Under the pieces are notes generated by a model. The model ran no database searches and was not told the DNA's origin. It saw only the letters and a program-made list of their open reading frames with translations. DNA of 64,000 nucleotides from Victivallis vadensis (lineage in GTDB: Bacteria; Verrucomicrobiota; Lentisphaeria; Victivallales; Victivallaceae), in assembly GCF_003096415.1 (NCBI RefSeq), contig NZ_QEKH01000007.1:62001-126000 (forward strand), read 5' to 3'. Numbering within the stretch: position 1 is the stretch's first letter; the number at the start of each line of letters is the position of its first letter. Below, in pieces: positions 1 to 60,905 of this stretch. A program made the translations under genes and the position numbers.

Positions 1-898
1 GTGCCGAATACTTCAGATCCGGGAAAGGCGGAACGCCTTTCCCTCCGGGAGGGGGAGCCCTGATGGAGACAGGCATGGTTGTACAGGAGCGGCACACCGC
101 TCCGGTCGGCGCAAAGCCTGCTTTTTTGCCCGGAATGACGAGTACGGCGAAGCCGCACGGAGGAATGGAGGGAGGGGCCCACGAAAAGTACCCGCAGCTT
201 TTGGGCTTTGCCCAAAAGTCCCGAGGCCCGTGGCCGAAGGGAGGCAACTTTTTGGGGAGGGGGCACTCCCTGCGCCTGCTGCCGCCGGAGGTCACGCGCG
301 AAACCTCCAGATGCTAACCATCTGATTTGAAGTTACTCTGATGGAGGCTGAACTCTCCCTACCTTTTCATACAGGCAAGATTCAGTAAGGCTCGTATTCA
401 AAGATATGCTTGTCTGTGATATGACAATTGTATTGTTGCCTGACCTCGCCTTGCCTATATGGGAGTTTAGCTCTTATCAGCCTCCATCAGGGTATCTTTC
501 TATTACCCGGTCAGCATCTGGAGGTTTCGCGCGTGACCTCCGGCGGCAGCAGGCGCAGGGAGTGCCCCCTCCCCAAAAAGTTGCCTCCCTTCGGCCACGG
601 GCCTCGGGACTTTTGGGCAAAGCCCAAAAGCTGCGGGTACTTTTCGTGGGCCCCTCCCTTCATTCCTCCGTGCGGCTTCGCCGTACCCGTCATTCCGGGC
701 AAAAAAGCCGACGCGGTCGCCGACCGGAGCGGTGTGCCGCTCAGGTACTCGCCTGCCTGTCCACAGTAGAGCCTCCCCCCATCCGGAGGGAAAGGCGGTA
801 CGCCTTTTCCGGATCTCAAGTATTCGGCGCCGGCACCTTGCCGGTCGGGGTCAAGGGGCGAAGCGCCCTTGTCGCTGCGATCAGCAGCGAAATCCCCG
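1..898. repeat. Large palindromic intergenic element, copy 1 (left end cut by window)
   Basis: Positions 121-315 and 513-707 are inverted copies of each other, 195 bp long with only a couple of mismatches seen by eye. They enclose a centre at 316-512 that is also conserved in the copy at 60220-60905. Outside these arms lie further, less perfect inverted modules. The centre has its own inverted pair, CTGATGGAGGCTGA near 338 and TCAGCCTCCATCAG near 477. The right end, which reads GCGAAATCCCC, stops three bases before the stop codon of the next gene at 901. Each arm has a short inward-facing reading frame (63-317 plus, 511-819 minus) ending in the same peptide. I regard these as by-products of the repeat. 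No transposase is present. Confidence 0.85.
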
Positions 899-13320: not shown

Positions 13321-15404
13321 ACTGGCGCAGCGGACATCCCTTTTTCAAACACGGCATCGGCGCCGACCGCGTCTCCTTCTCCGGCGGGCGCCTCGCCGCC
13401 GATCTCGCCCGCCACGGCGGCCTGACCGCGATCCGCTATTACGGCGCGCAGCGGTTCGGGGACACCGGTTTCTTTCAGGCCGACCCGATTTCGGCGTGGG
13501 CGCTGCTCTTCCGGCCGATGGTGCGGTTCGACGGAATGCGGCGCTACGCGCTGGAATTTCACGATACGTCGGTCTACCCGACCGGCTACCGAAGTTGCTG
13601 CGAACTGGAGGGGGTGCCGTTGGAACACGAATGTTTCCTGGCCAACGACGCGCTGATCTTCCGGCTGAAACTCCCCGCCGGAACCGGCGGACACACGCTC
13701 GAATTTGAACTGATCAACACCGACCGATGCACCCGGACCGACAAGCCGACCCGGCACTGGGAGCGGCTGCACGGCCCGTACTGGCGGATCACCGACCGTT
13801 ACTCCGATGAAACAATACGGCGCGAAAAGGAGGCGGGCTACCTGACGCTTGCCCAGCGCGGCGACCGGTATGTGCCGCAGGTGCAGAGCGCGGTCACCGA
13901 ATTCGGCGTGGCGGGCGGCGGGCCGGTGCGGTTCCGCGAAACGCCGCACCTGTTCCGCAAACACTATTACGCGCAGGATGTGGAGTCCGGCGAATGTTTC
14001 TTCCTGCTCGGTTTCGGGCACAAAGGCCCGCAGGAACTGCAGCAGCGCCTCGCGGAGTATTGCGAACGCAGGGCGGAACTGTTCGCGCCCCCGGCGGAGA
14101 ATACGGCCCGTTTCCACACCGGCAGCCGTCCGCTCGACTCGTTTCTGCACGAGGCGGGCGGCATCATCGACTCGCTGAAGGTCCGGGACATCCCCGGCGG
14201 CATCCGCGCCGCCGACTCCGGCTACTGGATCTGGGGGTGGGACGGGATGGTCCACGCCGACGCCCACGGCTGGCTGAACCAGTCCGGCTTCCTGGCGGAA
14301 ATGCTCCGCTTCTACCGCGACACCGCCGATCCGGTCAACGGGATTTTCCACGAAATGACCATCGACGGGCGGCCTTTCCTGTCGATGGCGCCACCGGCCC
14401 AATGCCTCTACGCGGTGATGCTCTACTATTATTATGTGTTCACCGGAGACCGTGCGCTGCTGCGCGAATACATTGTTTTCGCGGACAAACTGGTGCGCCG
14501 CGCCGGAGCCGACGCCATCGGCGGCCTGATCCGGGGCGTGTCGCTCTACCCCGACCATCCCGAGGATCTCGAACAGGACGGGAACGACCTCAGCGTTTTC
14601 AACAACAGCATCTACTTTCAGGCGCTGCGAACGCTGGAGCGGCTGCACGGCGAACTCGGCGATGCGGACGAATGCGAGGAATACCGGCAGCTTGCGGAAC
14701 GGACCCGCCGGGACTTCGCGAAATTCCGCGCCCCGGAAGGGGGCTTTTACGATTCGCTGTCGGCAACGGATCTTTCGCCGCGCCGCCATCGCCCGGTCTA
14801 CGCCATCCTGTACGAAACACCGTTCGCCGACGAACTTCTGACGCCCGCCGACGCCGCCCTCTGCGGCCTTTTCTCCACCCGGCAGGGATGCCGGATCCTG
14901 CCGCTGGACGACAGCCGCTGGATGTACGACGGCAATCAGCTGGGAATGTACATGCCGTGCACCGAACTCTGGTTCCGCGAACTCCACTCAAAACTCGATC
15001 CGGCGCAGGCGCGGCGAAAGCTGTATGCGGACGTCATCTGGAACTGGTCGCGCCTGACGCTGCCCGAGGCGCTGACCTGCGAATACGAAAACCACGGTCT
15101 CACGCCGGACAATCCCGGCCGCAAACAGCTTTTCACGGTGAAGGCGTGGGTCGGCGCGCTGTTCCGCTTCGCCGGAGGCGTCGAACTGTCGGAACGCGGG
15201 CTGCACTTCCGCGACAGCGCCGATCCGCGCTTCGCCGTCTCCGGCCTTGCGCTGCGCGGCTCCTCCGTCTCGATCCGCCAGCGCGGCGGTTCCGGGCCGG
15301 TGCTCCGGCTGCGGCTGAACGGCAGGCTCCTGCCGGATACCCGCCTGATCCCCTTCGAGCAACTGCGCACCCGGTGCAGCACGGTTACGGTGGAGAGAGC
15401 CTGA
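13317..15404 (+). CDS. Six-hairpin glycosidase-like protein
   Basis: This 695-residue protein has an N-terminal beta-rich domain and a C-terminal (alpha/alpha)6 toroid resembling amylo-1,6-glucosidase, GH63, GH78 and related enzymes. GYWIWGWDGMVHADAHGW near residue 300 and SRWMYDGNQLGMYMPCTELWF near 530 are typical acidic, aromatic-rich active-site loops of such toroids. No signal peptide is seen. It is coupled to the GH43-like gene by a 4-base ATGA overlap and ends the plus-strand group. Its 3' end overlaps the end of the convergent regulator gene by 20 bases. The precise family and substrate are not clear. Confidence 0.7.
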   Translation: MNWRSGHPFFKHGIGADRVSFSGGRLAADLARHGGLTAIRYYGAQRFGDTGFFQADPISAWALLFRPMVRFDGMRRYALEFHDTSVYPTGYRSCCELEGVPLEHECFLANDALIFRLKLPAGTGGHTLEFELINTDRCTRTDKPTRHWERLHGPYWRITDRYSDETIRREKEAGYLTLAQRGDRYVPQVQSAVTEFGVAGGGPVRFRETPHLFRKHYYAQDVESGECFFLLGFGHKGPQELQQRLAEYCERRAELFAPPAENTARFHTGSRPLDSFLHEAGGIIDSLKVRDIPGGIRAADSGYWIWGWDGMVHADAHGWLNQSGFLAEMLRFYRDTADPVNGIFHEMTIDGRPFLSMAPPAQCLYAVMLYYYYVFTGDRALLREYIVFADKLVRRAGADAIGGLIRGVSLYPDHPEDLEQDGNDLSVFNNSIYFQALRTLERLHGELGDADECEEYRQLAERTRRDFAKFRAPEGGFYDSLSATDLSPRRHRPVYAILYETPFADELLTPADAALCGLFSTRQGCRILPLDDSRWMYDGNQLGMYMPCTELWFRELHSKLDPAQARRKLYADVIWNWSRLTLPEALTCEYENHGLTPDNPGRKQLFTVKAWVGALFRFAGGVELSERGLHFRDSADPRFAVSGLALRGSSVSIRQRGGSGPVLRLRLNGRLLPDTRLIPFEQLRTRCSTVTVERA

Positions 15405-16527
15405 CGCGGCGTTCCGCCTCCGCCGCCCCGCCCTGCAGCTCGTAACCGGCGGCGGAGCGGACGAATGAGGAGGGGATCACCAGTTCCGGCGTTTTGATGA
15501 TCTTGTCGCAATCATCGGCCGGACGGCGGCCGTTGATGATCTCCAGCAGCACATGCGCCGCGTCGCGCCCGATATCCTCCATGCGGATATCGATCGCCAC
15601 CGGCCGGGGATAAAGCCCGTGCAGGTGAAAATCGTTGTTGTCGCACCCGACGATCGTGAATTCCGCCGGATTGCGCCCCAACTGATAGATGATCTGGTAC
15701 AATGGAGTGCATGCGAGGTCGTTCGGCACGAAAATCCCCGTCGGCTCCCGGCTTTCGAGCGCCGGGGCCAGTTGGCGCCGCCCCTGTTCCATATATTCCG
15801 AAAAGGGCAGGAAATAGGGGTCGAGCGGCAGTTCCGTCACCCGATGGCCGAATTCGGCGACCCGGGCCGCAAAACTCCGGTAGCGGCTCTCGTTGAGATT
15901 TTCCGGCAGCGGCCCGAAAGTGATGAAACGGCGGCAGCCGCACCTGACCAGATACTCCGCGGCCAGCGGGCCGATCGCGTCGTTGTCATAAGTGATCTGG
16001 GGATAACCGCTTCTCTGCCGGTAGTCGCCGAGCACCCGGACCCGCGGCACTCCGGCGGTGATCGCCAGTTCCTCCTCGCTGACGCTTCCGGCGGTGGAAA
16101 AGACCAGCGCGTCGACCTCCCGCTTCAACTGTTCGATCGCCTCCGCCTCATTGGAGGCCGCCACCAGCGAGTGCAAGGTCAGATGCTCCGGCTCCATCAC
16201 TCTGGCGCATCCCCGGATGATCTTGTAATAGCTGATCAGGTGGTCGGGATTCCCCTGCCGGTCGCGGTCGCTTTTGAAAATCAGAAAACCGATGCGGCGC
16301 TTGCGTCCGACGAAGGTTCCGATCCTCTCGCGCTGATACACCAGCCCCAGCTCCGACAGATTCCGCAGCACCTTGCTGATCGTCAGGGGATTGACGGCGA
16401 ACTCCTGCGCAAGCTGATTCACCCCCGGCAGTTTCCCCAGATAGATGCCGCTGTTGATGCGTTCGATGATCTCCTGCTGAACCCGGGCGGCCTTGGTCCG
16501 GCGTCTCGGCTGTCTTGAATTTTCCAT
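15385..16527 (-). CDS. GntR-family regulator with LacI-type sensor domain
   Basis: This 380-residue protein has an N-terminal GntR winged helix (about residues 15-75, with LPGVNQLAQEFAVNPLTISKVL) and a LacI-like sugar-binding domain starting at KRRIGFLIFKSDRD. It is transcribed away from the heparinase-like/prepilin/transporter operon. A 13-base motif is shared, in mirror orientation, just downstream of both promoters. It therefore very likely represses itself and that operon, and is released by a sugar derived from the operon substrate. The start at 16527 follows a weak ribosome site. Its end overlaps the convergent six-hairpin gene. Confidence 0.87.
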   Translation of the reverse strand: MENSRQPRRRTKAARVQQEIIERINSGIYLGKLPGVNQLAQEFAVNPLTISKVLRNLSELGLVYQRERIGTFVGRKRRIGFLIFKSDRDRQGNPDHLISYYKIIRGCARVMEPEHLTLHSLVAASNEAEAIEQLKREVDALVFSTAGSVSEEELAITAGVPRVRVLGDYRQRSGYPQITYDNDAIGPLAAEYLVRCGCRRFITFGPLPENLNESRYRSFAARVAEFGHRVTELPLDPYFLPFSEYMEQGRRQLAPALESREPTGIFVPNDLACTPLYQIIYQLGRNPAEFTIVGCDNNDFHLHGLYPRPVAIDIRMEDIGRDAAHVLLEIINGRRPADDCDKIIKTPELVIPSSFVRSAAGYELQGGAAEAERRVRLSPP

Positions 16528-16553: not shown

Positions 16554-16602
16554 ATAATGCAACTGTTTTATATAATTATATCATAACAATACGAAAAAGC
16601 AA
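16554..16602 (-). promoter_or_regulatory. Promoter and operator of the regulator gene
   Basis: On the minus strand TTGCTT (16602-16597) and TATAAT (16580-16575) are 16 bases apart. Eight bases downstream lies ACAGTTGCATTAT (read on the minus strand, 16566-16554), the same 13-mer that follows the divergent promoter at 16774. Confidence 0.75.
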
Positions 16603-16773
16603 TGGCGACATCCGATTATTCCGCATTTTTCATCCTGATAAAGCGGATTTTTCCCTGTATCTGCACCGTAAACTACCATAGCTGATTCAGCAGAGGCAGG
16701 CCGGATACCGGAAACGGAGAGGGCGTTTTTCACTTCATTTTCCATATTTTTTTCATTTTTTCCGATTTTGCCA

Positions 16774-16824
16774 TTGACATTTGCCGCAAATGTTGGTATA
16801 ATTAAAATAGTACAGTTGCATTAT
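16774..16824 (+). promoter_or_regulatory. Promoter and operator of the heparinase-like operon
   Basis: TTGACA (16774-16779) and TATAAT (16797-16802) are 17 bases apart, with TGG before the -10 box. ACAGTTGCATTAT lies at 16812-16824, over the likely transcription start. The rest of the 373-base space between the two genes is A/T-rich and shows no gene. A leader of about 90 bases precedes the start at 16901. Confidence 0.8.
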
Positions 16825-16900
16825 TTAATTGACAGATACCGGAGAAATCCCCGGCTTGTCCCAATCAATATCGTCAACAGCAAACAGTAAAGGGCTCCCG

Positions 16901-19900
16901 ATGGCAAAGACATACGTGCCGGTCATGCTGGCGATCGCAACCGCGTTTGCAATCCATGCGGCGGAAACCGGCCTTACGCATCCCGTGCTCCCCCAGAGCG
17001 AATGGCAGCTGAATCTGCAGGAGATACCGGAAAGCGGCGGCAAATACAACGCCGAAGCCGACCGGCTGATCGCCCTGCCGCTCGACGAACTCAAAAAGCA
17101 AGTGAGAACCGCCGCCGCCCGAATCAGGTCGGTCGATGAGCGCGCCGGGGATTACGAGGACGCCGCCAATGTGCTCGCTTACCGTGCGCTGCAGGAAAAG
17201 AACGAGGATTACGCCCGGCGCGCGCTGTGGATCCTCTATTTGATCGCGGAGCAGACCCGCGATATTTTTGAAACCCGCCCGACCTTTTTCAACCCCGGCA
17301 CCACGATTTCGCCCTCCGTTTACGCCTATGACAAGCTGCACGACTCGCCCGCCTGGAAGCATCTGCCCGCGGATGCCAGAAAAACGGTGGAGGAGTGGTA
17401 CGTCAGAAGCTCGTGGTCCTTGCTGCGCAGCCTCGCCCAGACCGGAAAGCTGGTCAATATGATGCCGCACGCCATCCAGCGCGGAACCGGGACGGCGCTG
17501 GTGCTGAACTCCCCGGAGCTGATGCGCGGCTGGATCGGCTTCTGCGACCGCTTCCTCTCCCCCGGCCAGTTCCTGTCGGATGGGATTTACGAAGATTTCT
17601 CCCCCTCCTACCACTATCAGGTGATGAACCACCTCCGCCCGGCGATGTTCAATTTCGAGCAGTTCCGCGACCCGCCCGGCTATCGCGATCTGGTCTACGG
17701 GCTCAAGCTCGACGGCACTTACTCCTTCCGCGACCGGTGGCCGCTTTACGAGCTCGCCGCCCGGGCGGACGACAGCCTGCGCTTCCCGGACAACCGCCTG
17801 ATTCCGCTGGGGGACACCCATTGCCCGCCCTCCGCCGACGAAGCGCCGGGAACCGGCCCGACCCGGAATCTGGAATTCAACCACGCCGGCCACTTTTCGC
17901 TGAACCACGGTTCCGGGGCGGCGCAGCAGCAGCTCCATCTGACCTTCGCCCCCATCCTGCACGGGCCGCCCTACGGCGGCGGCCATGCCCACATGGACAA
18001 TCTGGGGCTGATCCTCTACGGGGCGGGTTCCGACTGGCTCGCCGACGCCGGTTACGCCGCCTACGCCGACGGTTTCGGCTCCACGGACAAATACTTTCAT
18101 CACACGGTGCGCAGCCACAACACCGCGTTCGCCTGGGACCGTTCGGCAGAGCCATACCGCAACCGGGATCAGAAGCCCTCCCGCTCCCGGCTGCTCGCCT
18201 ACGAGGACGGCAGCGGCAGCGCCGGAAACCTCCGGCTTCTCGAAGCCTCGTCCCCCGGAGACGCGGCGGACAAAGTCGCCCTGCGCAGGCGCCTGCTGCT
18301 CCAGATCGCGGTCGATGACGCCGCCTGCTACACGCTCGACCTTTTCCGGCTGAAAGGCGGAGAGGTCCACGAAAGCTACCTGCGCCAGACCGAGGACGAA
18401 CCCTGCACCCGGACAACCGATGCGCCGCTGAAAGCCGAAACCGGCACGCTGAAAGAGATTCTCGGCCCGAAACGCGGCAGCGACTACAACAACTATCTGC
18501 ACTTCTTCCGGGAAGTCAAAAGCGCCGACGGCAGCCGCCCGCTGAACTATGAATGGCGCGGCAACGACAGCGGCAACCGGCTGAATGTATTCCTGAACCC
18601 GGTCCCCGGCTCCGTCAGCTACTTCGCCACGATCCCGAACCTGCGGCTGTATAAATTCAAAAATCCCCGCCGGGAGGACGGCGGCAGGGCGATTCCGTTC
18701 GGCAAGCTGCGCGGCGACCACCTGACCCGCACCCGGCCTGTTTCCCGGGACGAGCTGACCGTATTCGGCGCGCTCTATGAAGTGATCCGCAAAGGCGAAC
18801 CGGCGGCGGTAACCTCCGTCGACTGGTTTCAGGACGGCGGCGCGATCGCGGTCACCGTCACAGGGAAGATGGGGACGGACCTCATTTACAGCAGCGACGA
18901 CACCGCGGTGCGCACCGTCGGAACGATGCATTTCTCCGGCCCGCTGGCGGTCGTGCGACGGACTTCCTCCGGCGAGGTCCAATGGGTCTACACCCGGGGC
19001 GGCGCCTGGGTGAAGGGCGACGGCTTCCTCGCGGCGGGCAAGCCCGCCGACCGGCTGGGCGTCGTCGGGCTTCCTCCCGGACGGCAGCCCGCCGCCGAGC
19101 AGATCTCGGGCAATGAGCTGCTCGTCAACGCTCCCCCCGAAAAACTCGCCGGGCTGGACGGCCGGTGGATTTACCCGGAGCTGAGCGACGGCAGCGGCTA
19201 CGGCGTCAAAGTGGTCCGCGTCGAACCGCACGGCACGGTCAGCCGGCTGATTCTGGCCAACTCCCCGGTTTTCCGGGCCGACGGCAAGTCCACCCGGGTG
19301 TACATGCTCGGAAAGGAATACACGTTCCCCGGCACTCCCGAAATCGATATCGCCTGGCCCTCATTCGTCAGCAAGGATCACCTGAAAGACGGCACGCCGC
19401 CGGTCAACACCAGACTGGAGTTCTCCAAAGTGGCAAAAACCTCCCCGGCCTTCGCCTCGGTGGAATTTCTGAAAAAGCAGGGGTGGCGGGTCAACCGGGG
19501 AGCCGACAGTGACGAGGCGTTTTCCGTCCGGAGCCGGATCAACCCGTTCGCCCGGCCGATCCACCCCTCCGCCCCGCTGCTGCAGCTCTGGAACAACGGC
19601 AAGCAGGGAACGCCGGAAGCCGTTTATCCCTTCGGGCCGCTTCCTTCCGGCTCCATCCGGACCTCGCTCGGCACGGCGGGCGTCCAGAATCAGGGAGCAG
19701 TCCTGCGCCTCAATGCCGGAAATTCACCCCTGCTGGAACTCCGCCTCAACAACAATACCGACGGCGAAATCAGGCTCGGCGACAAAGTGATCCGGTTCCA
19801 GTCGGCTTCACGATTCCTGAAACCGCAGAATTTCGACCTCCGCTGGAAAGACGCTTCACCGGACAAACAGGGCCTGCTGACCGTGAAATCCGGCTCAACC

Positions 19901-20026
19901 GTCCTCTGCGCGGATGAGCCATTCGCACAGCCGGGGATTCCCGACCGCTTTTCCCTGACCGTGGGATACGACGGCGCCGCCAACCGGGGCCTGCTTGCCG
20001 GCGACACCGTCATCAGTAACAAGTAA
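16901..20026 (+). CDS. Secreted heparinase II/III-like polysaccharide lyase
   Basis: This is a large 1041-residue protein with a signal peptide (first about 20 residues, cut near IHA-AET). An N-terminal (alpha/alpha) toroid domain is followed by the heparinase II/III-like beta-sandwich. GGGHAHMDNLGLILYG near residue 359, then DWLADAGYAAYADGF and HTVRSHNTAFAWDRS, match the His- and Tyr-rich active site of that superfamily, which cleaves uronic-acid polymers. It is longer than typical members; the extra 350 C-terminal residues are of unknown role. The start at 16901 follows AAAGGG. It leads an operon with a prepilin and a transporter. Confidence 0.8.
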   Translation: MAKTYVPVMLAIATAFAIHAAETGLTHPVLPQSEWQLNLQEIPESGGKYNAEADRLIALPLDELKKQVRTAAARIRSVDERAGDYEDAANVLAYRALQEKNEDYARRALWILYLIAEQTRDIFETRPTFFNPGTTISPSVYAYDKLHDSPAWKHLPADARKTVEEWYVRSSWSLLRSLAQTGKLVNMMPHAIQRGTGTALVLNSPELMRGWIGFCDRFLSPGQFLSDGIYEDFSPSYHYQVMNHLRPAMFNFEQFRDPPGYRDLVYGLKLDGTYSFRDRWPLYELAARADDSLRFPDNRLIPLGDTHCPPSADEAPGTGPTRNLEFNHAGHFSLNHGSGAAQQQLHLTFAPILHGPPYGGGHAHMDNLGLILYGAGSDWLADAGYAAYADGFGSTDKYFHHTVRSHNTAFAWDRSAEPYRNRDQKPSRSRLLAYEDGSGSAGNLRLLEASSPGDAADKVALRRRLLLQIAVDDAACYTLDLFRLKGGEVHESYLRQTEDEPCTRTTDAPLKAETGTLKEILGPKRGSDYNNYLHFFREVKSADGSRPLNYEWRGNDSGNRLNVFLNPVPGSVSYFATIPNLRLYKFKNPRREDGGRAIPFGKLRGDHLTRTRPVSRDELTVFGALYEVIRKGEPAAVTSVDWFQDGGAIAVTVTGKMGTDLIYSSDDTAVRTVGTMHFSGPLAVVRRTSSGEVQWVYTRGGAWVKGDGFLAAGKPADRLGVVGLPPGRQPAAEQISGNELLVNAPPEKLAGLDGRWIYPELSDGSGYGVKVVRVEPHGTVSRLILANSPVFRADGKSTRVYMLGKEYTFPGTPEIDIAWPSFVSKDHLKDGTPPVNTRLEFSKVAKTSPAFASVEFLKKQGWRVNRGADSDEAFSVRSRINPFARPIHPSAPLLQLWNNGKQGTPEAVYPFGPLPSGSIRTSLGTAGVQNQGAVLRLNAGNSPLLELRLNNNTDGEIRLGDKVIRFQSASRFLKPQNFDLRWKDASPDKQGLLTVKSGSTVLCADEPFAQPGIPDRFSLTVGYDGAANRGLLAGDTVISNK

Positions 20027-20792: not shown

Positions 20793-22169
20793 ATGACAAA
20801 GCAATCGCACACCCCGGGTGCCGGACGCTGGACGGCGGGAACGCTGACCTACACCTCCGCCGGGATCGGAATATTGTTCTTCTGGCTGCTGTGGGGAGAT
20901 TTCGCGTGGTCCATGAAAGACCGGGCCGTGACCAGCGTGGCCACGCTGATGGTGAAATCGTTCGGCGTTTCCGACTTCATGTTCGGGCTGCTGATCCTGT
21001 CGTTTCCGAACTTCACCAATGCCGTTCTCGGGCCGCTGGTCAGTTACTTTTCGGACCGGCACCGCGGGCGCTTCGGCCGCCGGATTCCGTTTCTGGCGTT
21101 CACCGTGCCTTTCATCGTGACCGGCATGCTGGGACTGGCCTTCACGCCTCTCCTCGGCGAAATGCTGCACAACGCCGCGGGAGCGGACACCCTCTCCCGC
21201 CACACGGCCTCGCTGATCGTATTCGGAGTGTTCTGGATCATGTTTGACTTCGGGAATACGCTGGCCAGCTCCATTTTCACGGCACTGGTCAATGATGTGG
21301 TGCCGACCTCCCTGCTCGGGCGTTTCTTCGGGCTTTTCCGCGGGATCAGCCTGGCCGCGGGGGTGATCTTCAACTATTTTCTTCTCGGCCGCGCGGAGAG
21401 CCATTCCATGTGGATTTTTCTGGGGCTTGCGCTGCTGTATGCGTTCGGCTTTACTTTGCTTTTGTTCAAGGTCAAGGAGGGGGAGTATCCGCCGGCGGAG
21501 CGCGCGCTGCCCTGCACGCCCCGGAATATCCTCTTCATCTTCCGCGATTACTTCCGGGAGTGCTTCGCCCTGCCGTACTACCGGTGGGTGCTTTTCGCGA
21601 TTCCCGTGGCGGGACTCGCCAATATTCCCTTCAACGCGTACAGTATCTTCCATGCGAAAAGCCTGCACGTCAGCATGGACAGCCTGGGGAAATATTTCGC
21701 CTACACCTATATCATCTCCTTTGTGCTGAGTTACTTTCTCGGAGTGCTCGCCGACCGTTTCCATCCGATACGCATGGGGATTCTGTCCACCGCGCTGTAC
21801 GGCGTCGTAGCCTTCACCGGATGCTTTTTCATCACGGACCAGCTCTCTTTCGCGATCGTTTTCATCCTGCACGGGGTGCTGGCCGGCTGTTTCGGAACCC
21901 TGACCGCCTCTTTCGGGCCGCGCCTGTTTCCGCGCATGCTGTTCGCGCAGTTCAATTCGGCGATGTGGATTCTGCAGTCTTTGAGCTGGGTCATCGTCAC
22001 GCCGGTGATCGGGAAAATCCTCGACCTGATCGGCCACCAGTACCATTACACGCTGTTCGCCGGAGGAATCTTTTCGATCTTCGGCGTACTGATCCTGCTC
22101 AAGGTCTACCGGGAATTTCTCAAACTGGGCGGCGACGCCAACTACAAAGCTCCCGACATTGCCGCCTGA
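20793..22169 (+). CDS. Sugar:cation symporter-like MFS transporter
   Basis: This 458-residue membrane protein has about twelve hydrophobic segments. The loop DRHRGRFGRRIPF near residue 89 is a hallmark of the glycoside-pentoside-hexuronide (GPH/MelB) group and related major facilitator proteins. It probably imports the sugar or oligosaccharide released by the lyase at 16901. The start at 20793 follows GGAGCAGGCGG. It is the last gene of the operon; its stop is only 16 bases from the stop of the convergent GH71-like gene, with no visible terminator. Confidence 0.85.
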   Translation: MTKQSHTPGAGRWTAGTLTYTSAGIGILFFWLLWGDFAWSMKDRAVTSVATLMVKSFGVSDFMFGLLILSFPNFTNAVLGPLVSYFSDRHRGRFGRRIPFLAFTVPFIVTGMLGLAFTPLLGEMLHNAAGADTLSRHTASLIVFGVFWIMFDFGNTLASSIFTALVNDVVPTSLLGRFFGLFRGISLAAGVIFNYFLLGRAESHSMWIFLGLALLYAFGFTLLLFKVKEGEYPPAERALPCTPRNILFIFRDYFRECFALPYYRWVLFAIPVAGLANIPFNAYSIFHAKSLHVSMDSLGKYFAYTYIISFVLSYFLGVLADRFHPIRMGILSTALYGVVAFTGCFFITDQLSFAIVFILHGVLAGCFGTLTASFGPRLFPRMLFAQFNSAMWILQSLSWVIVTPVIGKILDLIGHQYHYTLFAGGIFSIFGVLILLKVYREFLKLGGDANYKAPDIAA

Positions 22170-60219: not shown

Positions 60220-60905
60220 GGGATTTCGCTCCTATTGGAGCGACCAAGGCGCTTCGCCCTTGGAACCCGACCGGCAAGGTGCCGGTGCCGAATACTTCAG
60301 ATCCGGGAAAGGGGAGCCCTGATGGAGACAGGCAGGGTTGTACAGGAGCGGCACACCGCTCCGGTCGGCGCAAAGCCCGCTTTTTTGCGGGCTTTAGGCA
60401 CTCCCTGCGCCTGCTGCCGCCGGAGGTCACGCTCGGAACTTCCAGATACTGACCATCTGATGTGAAGTTACTCTCATGGAGGCTGAACTCTCCCCTGCCT
60501 TTTCATACAGGCAAGGTTCAGTAAGGCTCGTACTCAAAGATATGCTTACCTGTGATATGACAATTGCATTGTTGCCTGACCTCGCTTTGCGTATATCGGC
60601 AGATAAACTCTTATCAGCCTCCATCAGGGTATCTTTCTATTACCCAGTCAGCATCTGGCCGTTCCGCGCGTGACCTCCGGCGGCAGCAGGTGCAGGGAGT
60701 GCCTAAAGCCCGCAAAAAAGCGGGCTTTGTGCCGACCGGAGCGGTGTGCCGCTCCTGTACAACCCTGCCTGTCTCCAGCAGAGTCTCCCACCCGGAGGGA
60801 AAGGCGGAACGCCTTTCCCGGATCTGCAGTATTCGGCACCGGCACCTTGCCGGTCGGGTTCCAAGGGCGAAGCGCCTTGGTCGCTCCGGGAGGAGCGAAA
60901 TCCCC
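60220..60905. repeat. Large palindromic intergenic element, copy 2 (complete)
   Basis: This 686-base element begins GGGGATTTCGC and ends GCGAAATCCCC. Its arms (about 60220-60455 and 60648-60905) are inverted copies, and the centre (about 60456-60647) closely matches 316-512. It fills almost exactly the space between the stop of the hydrolase (60215) and the stop of the AraC gene (60905). Both arms lack the module at about 130-265 that both arms of copy 1 contain. The CCGGCA-CCT-TGCCGG hairpin occurs near both ends. No protein gene is apparent. Confidence 0.87.

What the first reader, a model, noticed from the sequence alone, without database searches (positions are those of the whole stretch)
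16554..16824. Matched 13-bp operators placed symmetrically behind two divergent promoters
ACAGTTGCATTAT lies at 16812-16824 on the plus strand and at 16566-16554 on the minus strand. Each copy begins 8-9 bases after a TATAAT box. One promoter drives the GntR/LacI regulator and the other the heparinase-like/prepilin/transporter operon. The symmetry gives a clear prediction of the regulator's binding site and suggests possible DNA looping across 246 bases.
Basis: partly seen in the sequence, partly recalled or inferred. Interest (0 to 1): 0.6.

Follow-up and report, generated by a model that had tools for sequence, protein, structure and literature searches.

The report
Twin repressor sites at divergent promoters
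Two identical 13-base DNA tags sit at the start points of two back-to-back promoters and are most likely the binding sites through which a sugar-sensing repressor controls both its own gene and a polysaccharide-degrading operon, an ordinary kind of gene control seen here in a little-studied group of bacteria.

Summary
ACAGTTGCATTAT occurs twice, inverted, 8 and 9 bases behind the -10 boxes of two divergent promoters, and nowhere else exactly in the 5.2 Mb genome. Of 2862 mismatched regulator/divergent promoter pairs from the same genome, none shares 13 in-register bases.

Most likely these are the two operators of the adjacent regulator, which has a GntR-type DNA-binding domain fused to a LacI-type sugar sensor (AraR architecture). 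Its nearest relatives by DNA-binding domain, in other genomes of the family, carry a related element behind their own -10 boxes. In G005 and G006 it lies at both divergent promoters, inside blocks that stay identical while the surrounding DNA has diverged. The shared core is RYARYTRY, ACAGTTGC here, a degenerate relative of GT-N4-AC.

Looping is not supported: centre spacing is 253 bp here but 247 and 225 bp in relatives, without shared helical phase. Separate operators, one per promoter, are the simpler reading and are already described for GntR regulators (PMC4494728).

Verdict: real, well-placed, ordinary local autoregulation; a new member of a known kind. Binding itself is inferred, not shown.

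The parts
16812..16824 (+). Operator copy at the divergent (heparinase-like) promoter; inferred core ACAGTTGC at 16812-16819
16554..16566 (-). Operator copy at the regulator's own promoter; inferred core ACAGTTGC at 16566-16559
16774..16802 (+). Consensus sigma-70 promoter TTGACA-17-TATAAT of the heparinase-like operon
   Evidence: 12 of 12
16575..16602 (-). Promoter TTGCTT-16-TATAAT of the regulator gene
   Evidence: one search lists a neighbouring 9 of 12 alternative instead
15385..16527 (-). Regulator: GntR winged helix (residues 13-73) + LacI-type sugar sensor (190-350), AraR-type architecture
16901..20026 (+). Heparinase II/III-like secreted protein, first gene of the divergent operon (open frame from TTG 16829)
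   Evidence: PF07940
20066..20773 (+). Prepilin-like protein (N-terminal methylation motif)
20793..22169 (+). MFS sugar transporter

Best explanation
The two 13-mers are operators of the repressor encoded at 15385-16527. Shown: position, exact identity, uniqueness in the genome, register behind both -10 boxes, domain make-up of the regulator, and a related element at the same place in its nearest relatives. Inferred: a dimer of the regulator binds each copy over the transcription start and keeps RNA polymerase from starting. One copy gives negative autoregulation; the other represses the heparinase-like/prepilin/MFS operon; a sugar bound by the LacI-type domain releases both. Each operator acts on its own promoter, and no loop is needed. 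The likely contact core is the imperfect 8-bp palindrome RYARYTRY (ACAGTTGC here; GTAGCTAC, GTAATTGC, ATAGTTGT and ATAGCTAT in relatives), a degenerate form of the family's GT-N4-AC.
For: Only two exact copies in 5.2 Mb, both here; in-register match reached by 0 of 2862 mismatched promoter pairs. GntR HTH + Peripla_BP_3; best solved HTH relative is AraR (4egy). Four closest HTH relatives in other genomes (52-55% HTH identity) carry related elements behind their -10 boxes: 8 to 11 of 14 positions identical to our regulator-side copy, most of the rest transitions. In G005/G006 the elements lie in blocks conserved at both divergent promoters while the rest of the intergenic region diverged. The next HTH clade has ATAGCTAT 0-5 nt behind the -10 in 5 genomes, repeated in two. 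In the own genome RYARYTRY occurs in 6 of 126 windows behind regulator -10s, among them both members of this HTH group (L155, L119; Fisher p 0.002 but partly circular). Our window ranks 1st to 5th of 127 in likeness to the relatives' 22-26 nt windows. Class level: similarity between the regulator-side window and the rest of its own intergenic region exceeds that between loci in all but 2 of 5000 permutations (53 loci).
Against: No binding data. With 40-nt windows our site ranks only 14th-48th of 126 against the relatives; the good ranks came after I shortened the windows. Across 125 own-genome regulators recognition-helix similarity does not predict similarity to the 13-mer (Spearman -0.02). 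The 13-mer is not palindromic by plain scoring (palindrome p 0.66 for this window), and the recognition helix lacks the Arg that contacts G in AraR and FadR. No close ortholog of the regulator was found in 137 genomes of the order, so the exact 13-mer cannot be footprinted.
Confidence: 0.77

Rival explanations
1. The two operators are joined by one tetramer or higher oligomer that loops the 253-bp spacer and silences both promoters together.
For: Two identical inverted sites; 253 bp is 24.1 turns at 10.5 bp per turn. AraR is reported to bind paired boxes cooperatively with a small loop (PMC4218819 passages).
Against: Relatives with the same layout have 247 and 225 bp (23.5 and 21.4 turns), so phase and length are not kept. 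The AraR pairs described in those passages are boxes within one promoter. GntR divergons whose inter-site distance grows with the intergenic region are read as operon-specific (PMC4494728).
Confidence: 0.12
2. The 13-mers are operators of another regulator, for example one of the many paralogs, so that the locus is cross-regulated.
For: 127 GntR HTH matches in the genome. Paralog L198 has a duplicated element AAAGTAGTACAGTTGTT sharing TAGTACAGTTG with our divergent copy.
Against: The 13-mer is confined to this locus, as expected of a local autoregulator. Elements like it follow HTH relatives of this very regulator. In my judgement (not computed) the L198 overlap of 11 bases lies within what so many comparisons can give.
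Confidence: 0.08
3. The match is a copied promoter fragment or an mRNA 5'-end element without a protein reader.
For: The copies lie at the predicted 5' ends of both transcripts in the same sense, and similarity extends to 18 nt.
Against: -35 boxes and spacers differ, so similarity is confined to the -10 and operator zone. The window has no Rfam match. Relatives keep related elements at both promoters although the rest has diverged.
Confidence: 0.03

Closest known systems
AraR of Bacillus subtilis (GntR HTH + LacI/GalR sensor; araE/araR region)
   Same: Same two-domain architecture; local repressor of a sugar operon and transporter with autoregulation; AraR is the best solved HTH match (4egy). 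AraR facts from passages of PMC4218819.
   Different: AraR's boxes are longer palindromes around GTACGTAC, with paired boxes inside single promoters; here there is one site per promoter with a degenerate core, and the recognition helix has Pro and Ser where AraR has Arg-63 and Arg-67. Not an AraR ortholog; effector unknown.
GntR-family divergons with operon-specific double sites (FadR and HutC subfamilies; PMC4494728: abstract, passages and section 5 read)
   Same: Two sites in one divergent intergenic region, each near the gene it controls; autoregulation of the regulator gene.
   Different: That study covers FadR, HutC and YtrA regulators, not the LacI-sensor hybrids, and the taxon table I saw lists no Lentisphaerota.
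BioR, NanR, NagQ, FarR operators (as listed in PMC4494728)
   Same: Examples of GntR proteins whose sites depart from the GT-Nx-AC palindrome.
   Different: Other sequences and other subfamilies; resemblance only in being exceptions.

Membership tests
AraR-type GntR/LacI hybrid regulators | N-terminal GntR winged helix and C-terminal LacI/GalR-type sensor | tested here: met
   PF00392 43.9 bits and PF13377 51.2 bits, both over cut-off
AraR-type GntR/LacI hybrid regulators | Arg in the recognition helix contacting G (AraR Arg-63) | tested here: not met
   Alignment with 4egy puts Pro there, Ser at Arg-67 (contact table in PMC4494728)
AraR-type GntR/LacI hybrid regulators | Palindromic GT-Nx-AC operator | tested here: inconclusive
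   ACAGTTGC fits only as a degenerate form; GTAGCTAC in the G005/G006 relatives fits GT-N4-AC fully; palindrome score of our window is not significant
AraR-type GntR/LacI hybrid regulators | Sugar effector releases DNA | not testable with these tools
   none
GntR divergon with operon-specific double sites | Two copies of one site in a divergent region, each near its own gene's promoter | tested here: met
GntR divergon with operon-specific double sites | Sites follow the regulator across genomes | tested here: inconclusive
   Related, not identical, elements at both promoters of G005:C60 and G006:C219; no close ortholog available to test the exact site
GntR divergon with operon-specific double sites | Regulator binds both sites | not testable with these tools
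   none
Loop-forming operator pair | Conserved spacing or helical phase | tested here: not met
   253, 247, 225 bp; 24.1, 23.5, 21.4 turns

The most novel reading that the evidence does not exclude
In this LPG-type clade of GntR/LacI hybrids, whose recognition helix has lost the family's Arg-G contact, the operator is read mainly through purine/pyrimidine pattern (shape) as RYARYTRY. Operators can then drift by transitions while staying functional: one relative's site differs from ours at 5 of 14 positions, all transitions. A genome with over a hundred such regulators would be a natural set for decoding how paralogous repressors keep private operators.
Probability: 0.15. Interest if true: 0.6.

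Novelty: new member of a known kind. Interest (0 to 1): 0.28.

Why it matters
It gives a precise, testable binding site for one of 127 GntR-type regulators in a genome of the family Victivallaceae (placement inferred); three searches of the held paper library listed no such operator study for the group (listings and abstract starts only). The wider pattern is more useful than the single site. Intergenic regions before these regulators are rich in repeated motifs (43 of 114 regions at shuffle p of 0.05 or below, some of them dispersed repeats), so operators of many paralogs could be read off in bulk and matched to recognition helices.

Tried and rejected
Looking for close orthologs to footprint the exact 13-mer: none in 78 family genomes, 137 order genomes or the first scan of genome contigs. 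A second scan with three relatives' proteins returned 4 loci, the relatives already known, which gave names: the contig matching G004:C30 in length is titled uncultured Victivallaceae bacterium, and those matching G005 and G006 are titled uncultured Lentisphaeria. Family placement of the window rests on this and is inferred.

A recognition-helix to 13-mer correlation inside the genome: negative. Comparing 40-nt windows with relatives: weak, rank 14 to 48 of 126; windows of 22-26 nt gave rank 1 to 5 of 127, chosen after the first result. A palindrome scan behind all regulator -10s: 12 of 126 at p 0.05 or below, ours not among them. Excess of GT-Nx-AC: none for N4; N2 only, 1 of 100 shuffles, uncorrected for 8 spacings.

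The first shuffle survey used unoriented loci and coding DNA and was discarded (loci part; for L051-L080); one search replaced it. Several one search hits are dispersed repeats or the tandem TGCT array, not operators. In one search the rows marked 'opp' with perfect matches (L055, L146, L172, L178) are the same DNA read from both strands and were set aside; L137 matches around its start codon. Mirrored loci L111, L183, L189 were dropped. In one search the automatic -10 choice missed the sites of L050 and L215, which I placed by hand, and L220, L228 and L235 gave no usable helix.

Full report
WHAT IS THERE. ACAGTTGCATTAT lies at 16812-16824 (+) and 16566-16554 (-). The plus copy follows a full-consensus promoter (TTGACA, 17 nt, TG.TATAAT) by 9 bases; the minus copy follows TTGCTT, 16 nt, TATAAT by 8 bases. 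Both copies therefore cover the expected transcription starts. The plus promoter faces a heparinase II/III-like gene, a prepilin-like gene and an MFS transporter; the minus promoter faces a regulator with a GntR winged helix and a LacI-type sensor.

IS IT CHANCE? The 13-mer occurs exactly twice in the 5,199,916-base genome, both here; three further copies have one mismatch and all three lie in predicted genes. The repeat alone is only moderately unlikely in this A+T-rich spacer: 1 of 100 shuffles, 1 of 60. The register is what counts. Using promoters predicted for 54 divergent GntR loci of the same genome, 0 of 2862 mismatched regulator/divergent promoter pairs share 13 in-register bases and the largest shared run is 11 at shifts up to 6. 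No other locus of the 54 shows an exact in-register pair above 9 bases at shifts up to 2, so the exact architecture is rare even in this genome.

THE CLASS. The genome holds 127 GntR HTH matches and at least 150 Peripla_BP_3 matches, the number scored. I took all 127 GntR loci, called genes with a simple codon score and asked whether the 44 nt behind a regulator's -10 resembles the rest of its own intergenic region more than that of other loci. For 53 divergent loci the mean own-locus score is reached by 2 of 5000 permutations. Seven loci beat every other, ours among them; the rank distribution over all 53 is not itself significant (KS p 0.29), so a minority carries the signal. In two of the seven (L171, L198) the second copy lies just upstream of the regulator's own promoter, flanking one promoter rather than sitting at both.

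RELATIVES. No close ortholog was found in the order (137 genomes). The nearest by HTH are G005:C95 (55%), G006:C219 and G005:C60 (54%) and G004:C30 (52%), with recognition helices VNPLTVCKALDAL or VNPLTIRKVLDAL against ours VNPLTISKVLRNL. Behind their -10 boxes stand ATAGTTGTAATATA, ATAGTTATAATATA and GTAATTGCATGATR, and at the divergent promoters of G005:C60 and G006:C219 GTAGCTACGTTATA and GTAGCTACGATATA. Against our regulator-side copy these show 8-11 of 14 identities, 2-5 transitions and 0-1 transversions. I placed the 14-mers by eye, so the counts lean towards agreement. Independent of that placement, an alignment of the G005 and G006 intergenic regions shows 20- and 15-base identical blocks exactly at these two places in otherwise diverged DNA. 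The nearest clear divergent gene in G005 is also a prepilin-like protein.

Two further HTH clades support reading such elements as operators. Regulators with the helix [VA]NFMTVNKA have ATAGCTAT 0-5 nt behind the -10 in five genomes, followed by a second ACAGCTAT in two. Regulators with VNVKTM.KA in the own genome (L144) and G044 (L218) have ATGGTTWTA: four same-strand copies in L144, and two same-strand plus one opposite-strand copy in L218.

THE CORE. The elements of our clade and its neighbour share RYARYTRY: a palindrome in purine/pyrimidine terms, perfect in GTAGCTAC and ATAGCTAT, degenerate in ACAGTTGC. GTAGCTAC is GT-N4-AC, the spacing reported for HutC-type sites, and GTACGTAC forms the centre of the AraR box (PMC4494728 section 5 and passages; PMC4218819 passages). 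The Arg that contacts G in AraR and FadR is Pro here, which may be why our site departs from the consensus. In the own genome RYARYTRY occurs behind 6 of 126 regulator -10s (shuffle mean 4.4, so no general excess), including both members of this HTH group (Fisher p 0.002). The pattern was drawn partly from our own site, so only the ATAGCTAT clade is a fresh prediction.

RESULTS AGAINST. Recognition-helix similarity does not predict 13-mer similarity across 125 own-genome regulators. With 40-nt windows our site ranks 14th to 48th of 126 against relatives; 22-26 nt windows give rank 1 to 5 of 127, chosen after the first result. Our window has no significant plain palindrome.

LOOPING. Core centres are 253 bp apart here, 247 in G005 and 225 in G006 (24.1, 23.5 and 21.4 turns). 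Neither length nor phase is shared, so the data give looping no support, though they do not exclude it. In the survey of FadR- and HutC-type GntR divergons, double sites whose distance grows with the intergenic region are read as independent, each controlling its own operon (PMC4494728).

MECHANISM. Shown: sequence, register, uniqueness, domains, related elements in relatives. Inferred: a dimer on each copy blocks initiation; the regulator represses itself and the polysaccharide operon; a sugar releases it. The regulon appears local. Membership: AraR-type architecture is met; the Arg contact is not; the operator consensus is met only in degenerate form. I file it as a local GntR/LacI hybrid repressor with operon-specific twin operators, not as AraR.

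Noticed in passing
window 403-423 and 60539-60572; loci L010, L017, L019, L024, L028: Dispersed intergenic element of several hundred bases with long inverted-repeat ends and a well-conserved central ~150 nt; no gene called in it at the window 60.5 kb copy and no Rfam match in the window. It accounts for the copies of ACAATTGCATTGT (9 in the genome list) that I looked at.
   Followed up: partly
G000 whole genome (127 loci L051-L080, L111-L207): Very large expansion of GntR HTH regulators (127) and LacI-type sensor domains (at least 150) in 5.2 Mb.
   Followed up: partly
L119, L217, L219, L221, L222: Conserved ATAGCTATAAGCG directly behind the -10 of a regulator clade in five genomes, with a second copy in two (L119, L222).
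   Followed up: partly
L144 and L218: ATGGTTWTA repeated (four and three copies) around the promoters of related regulators in two genomes.
   Followed up: partly
L198: Duplicated 26-nt element flanking the regulator's own promoter, sharing TAGTACAGTTG with our divergent copy.
   Followed up: no
L175 upstream region: 147-nt near-identical tandem-like repeat before a GntR regulator; L157 has a long TGCT array.
   Followed up: no
window 16829-16901: The heparinase-like frame opens at TTG 16829, but ATG 16901 with a signal-peptide-like start is the likelier initiation codon.
   Followed up: no
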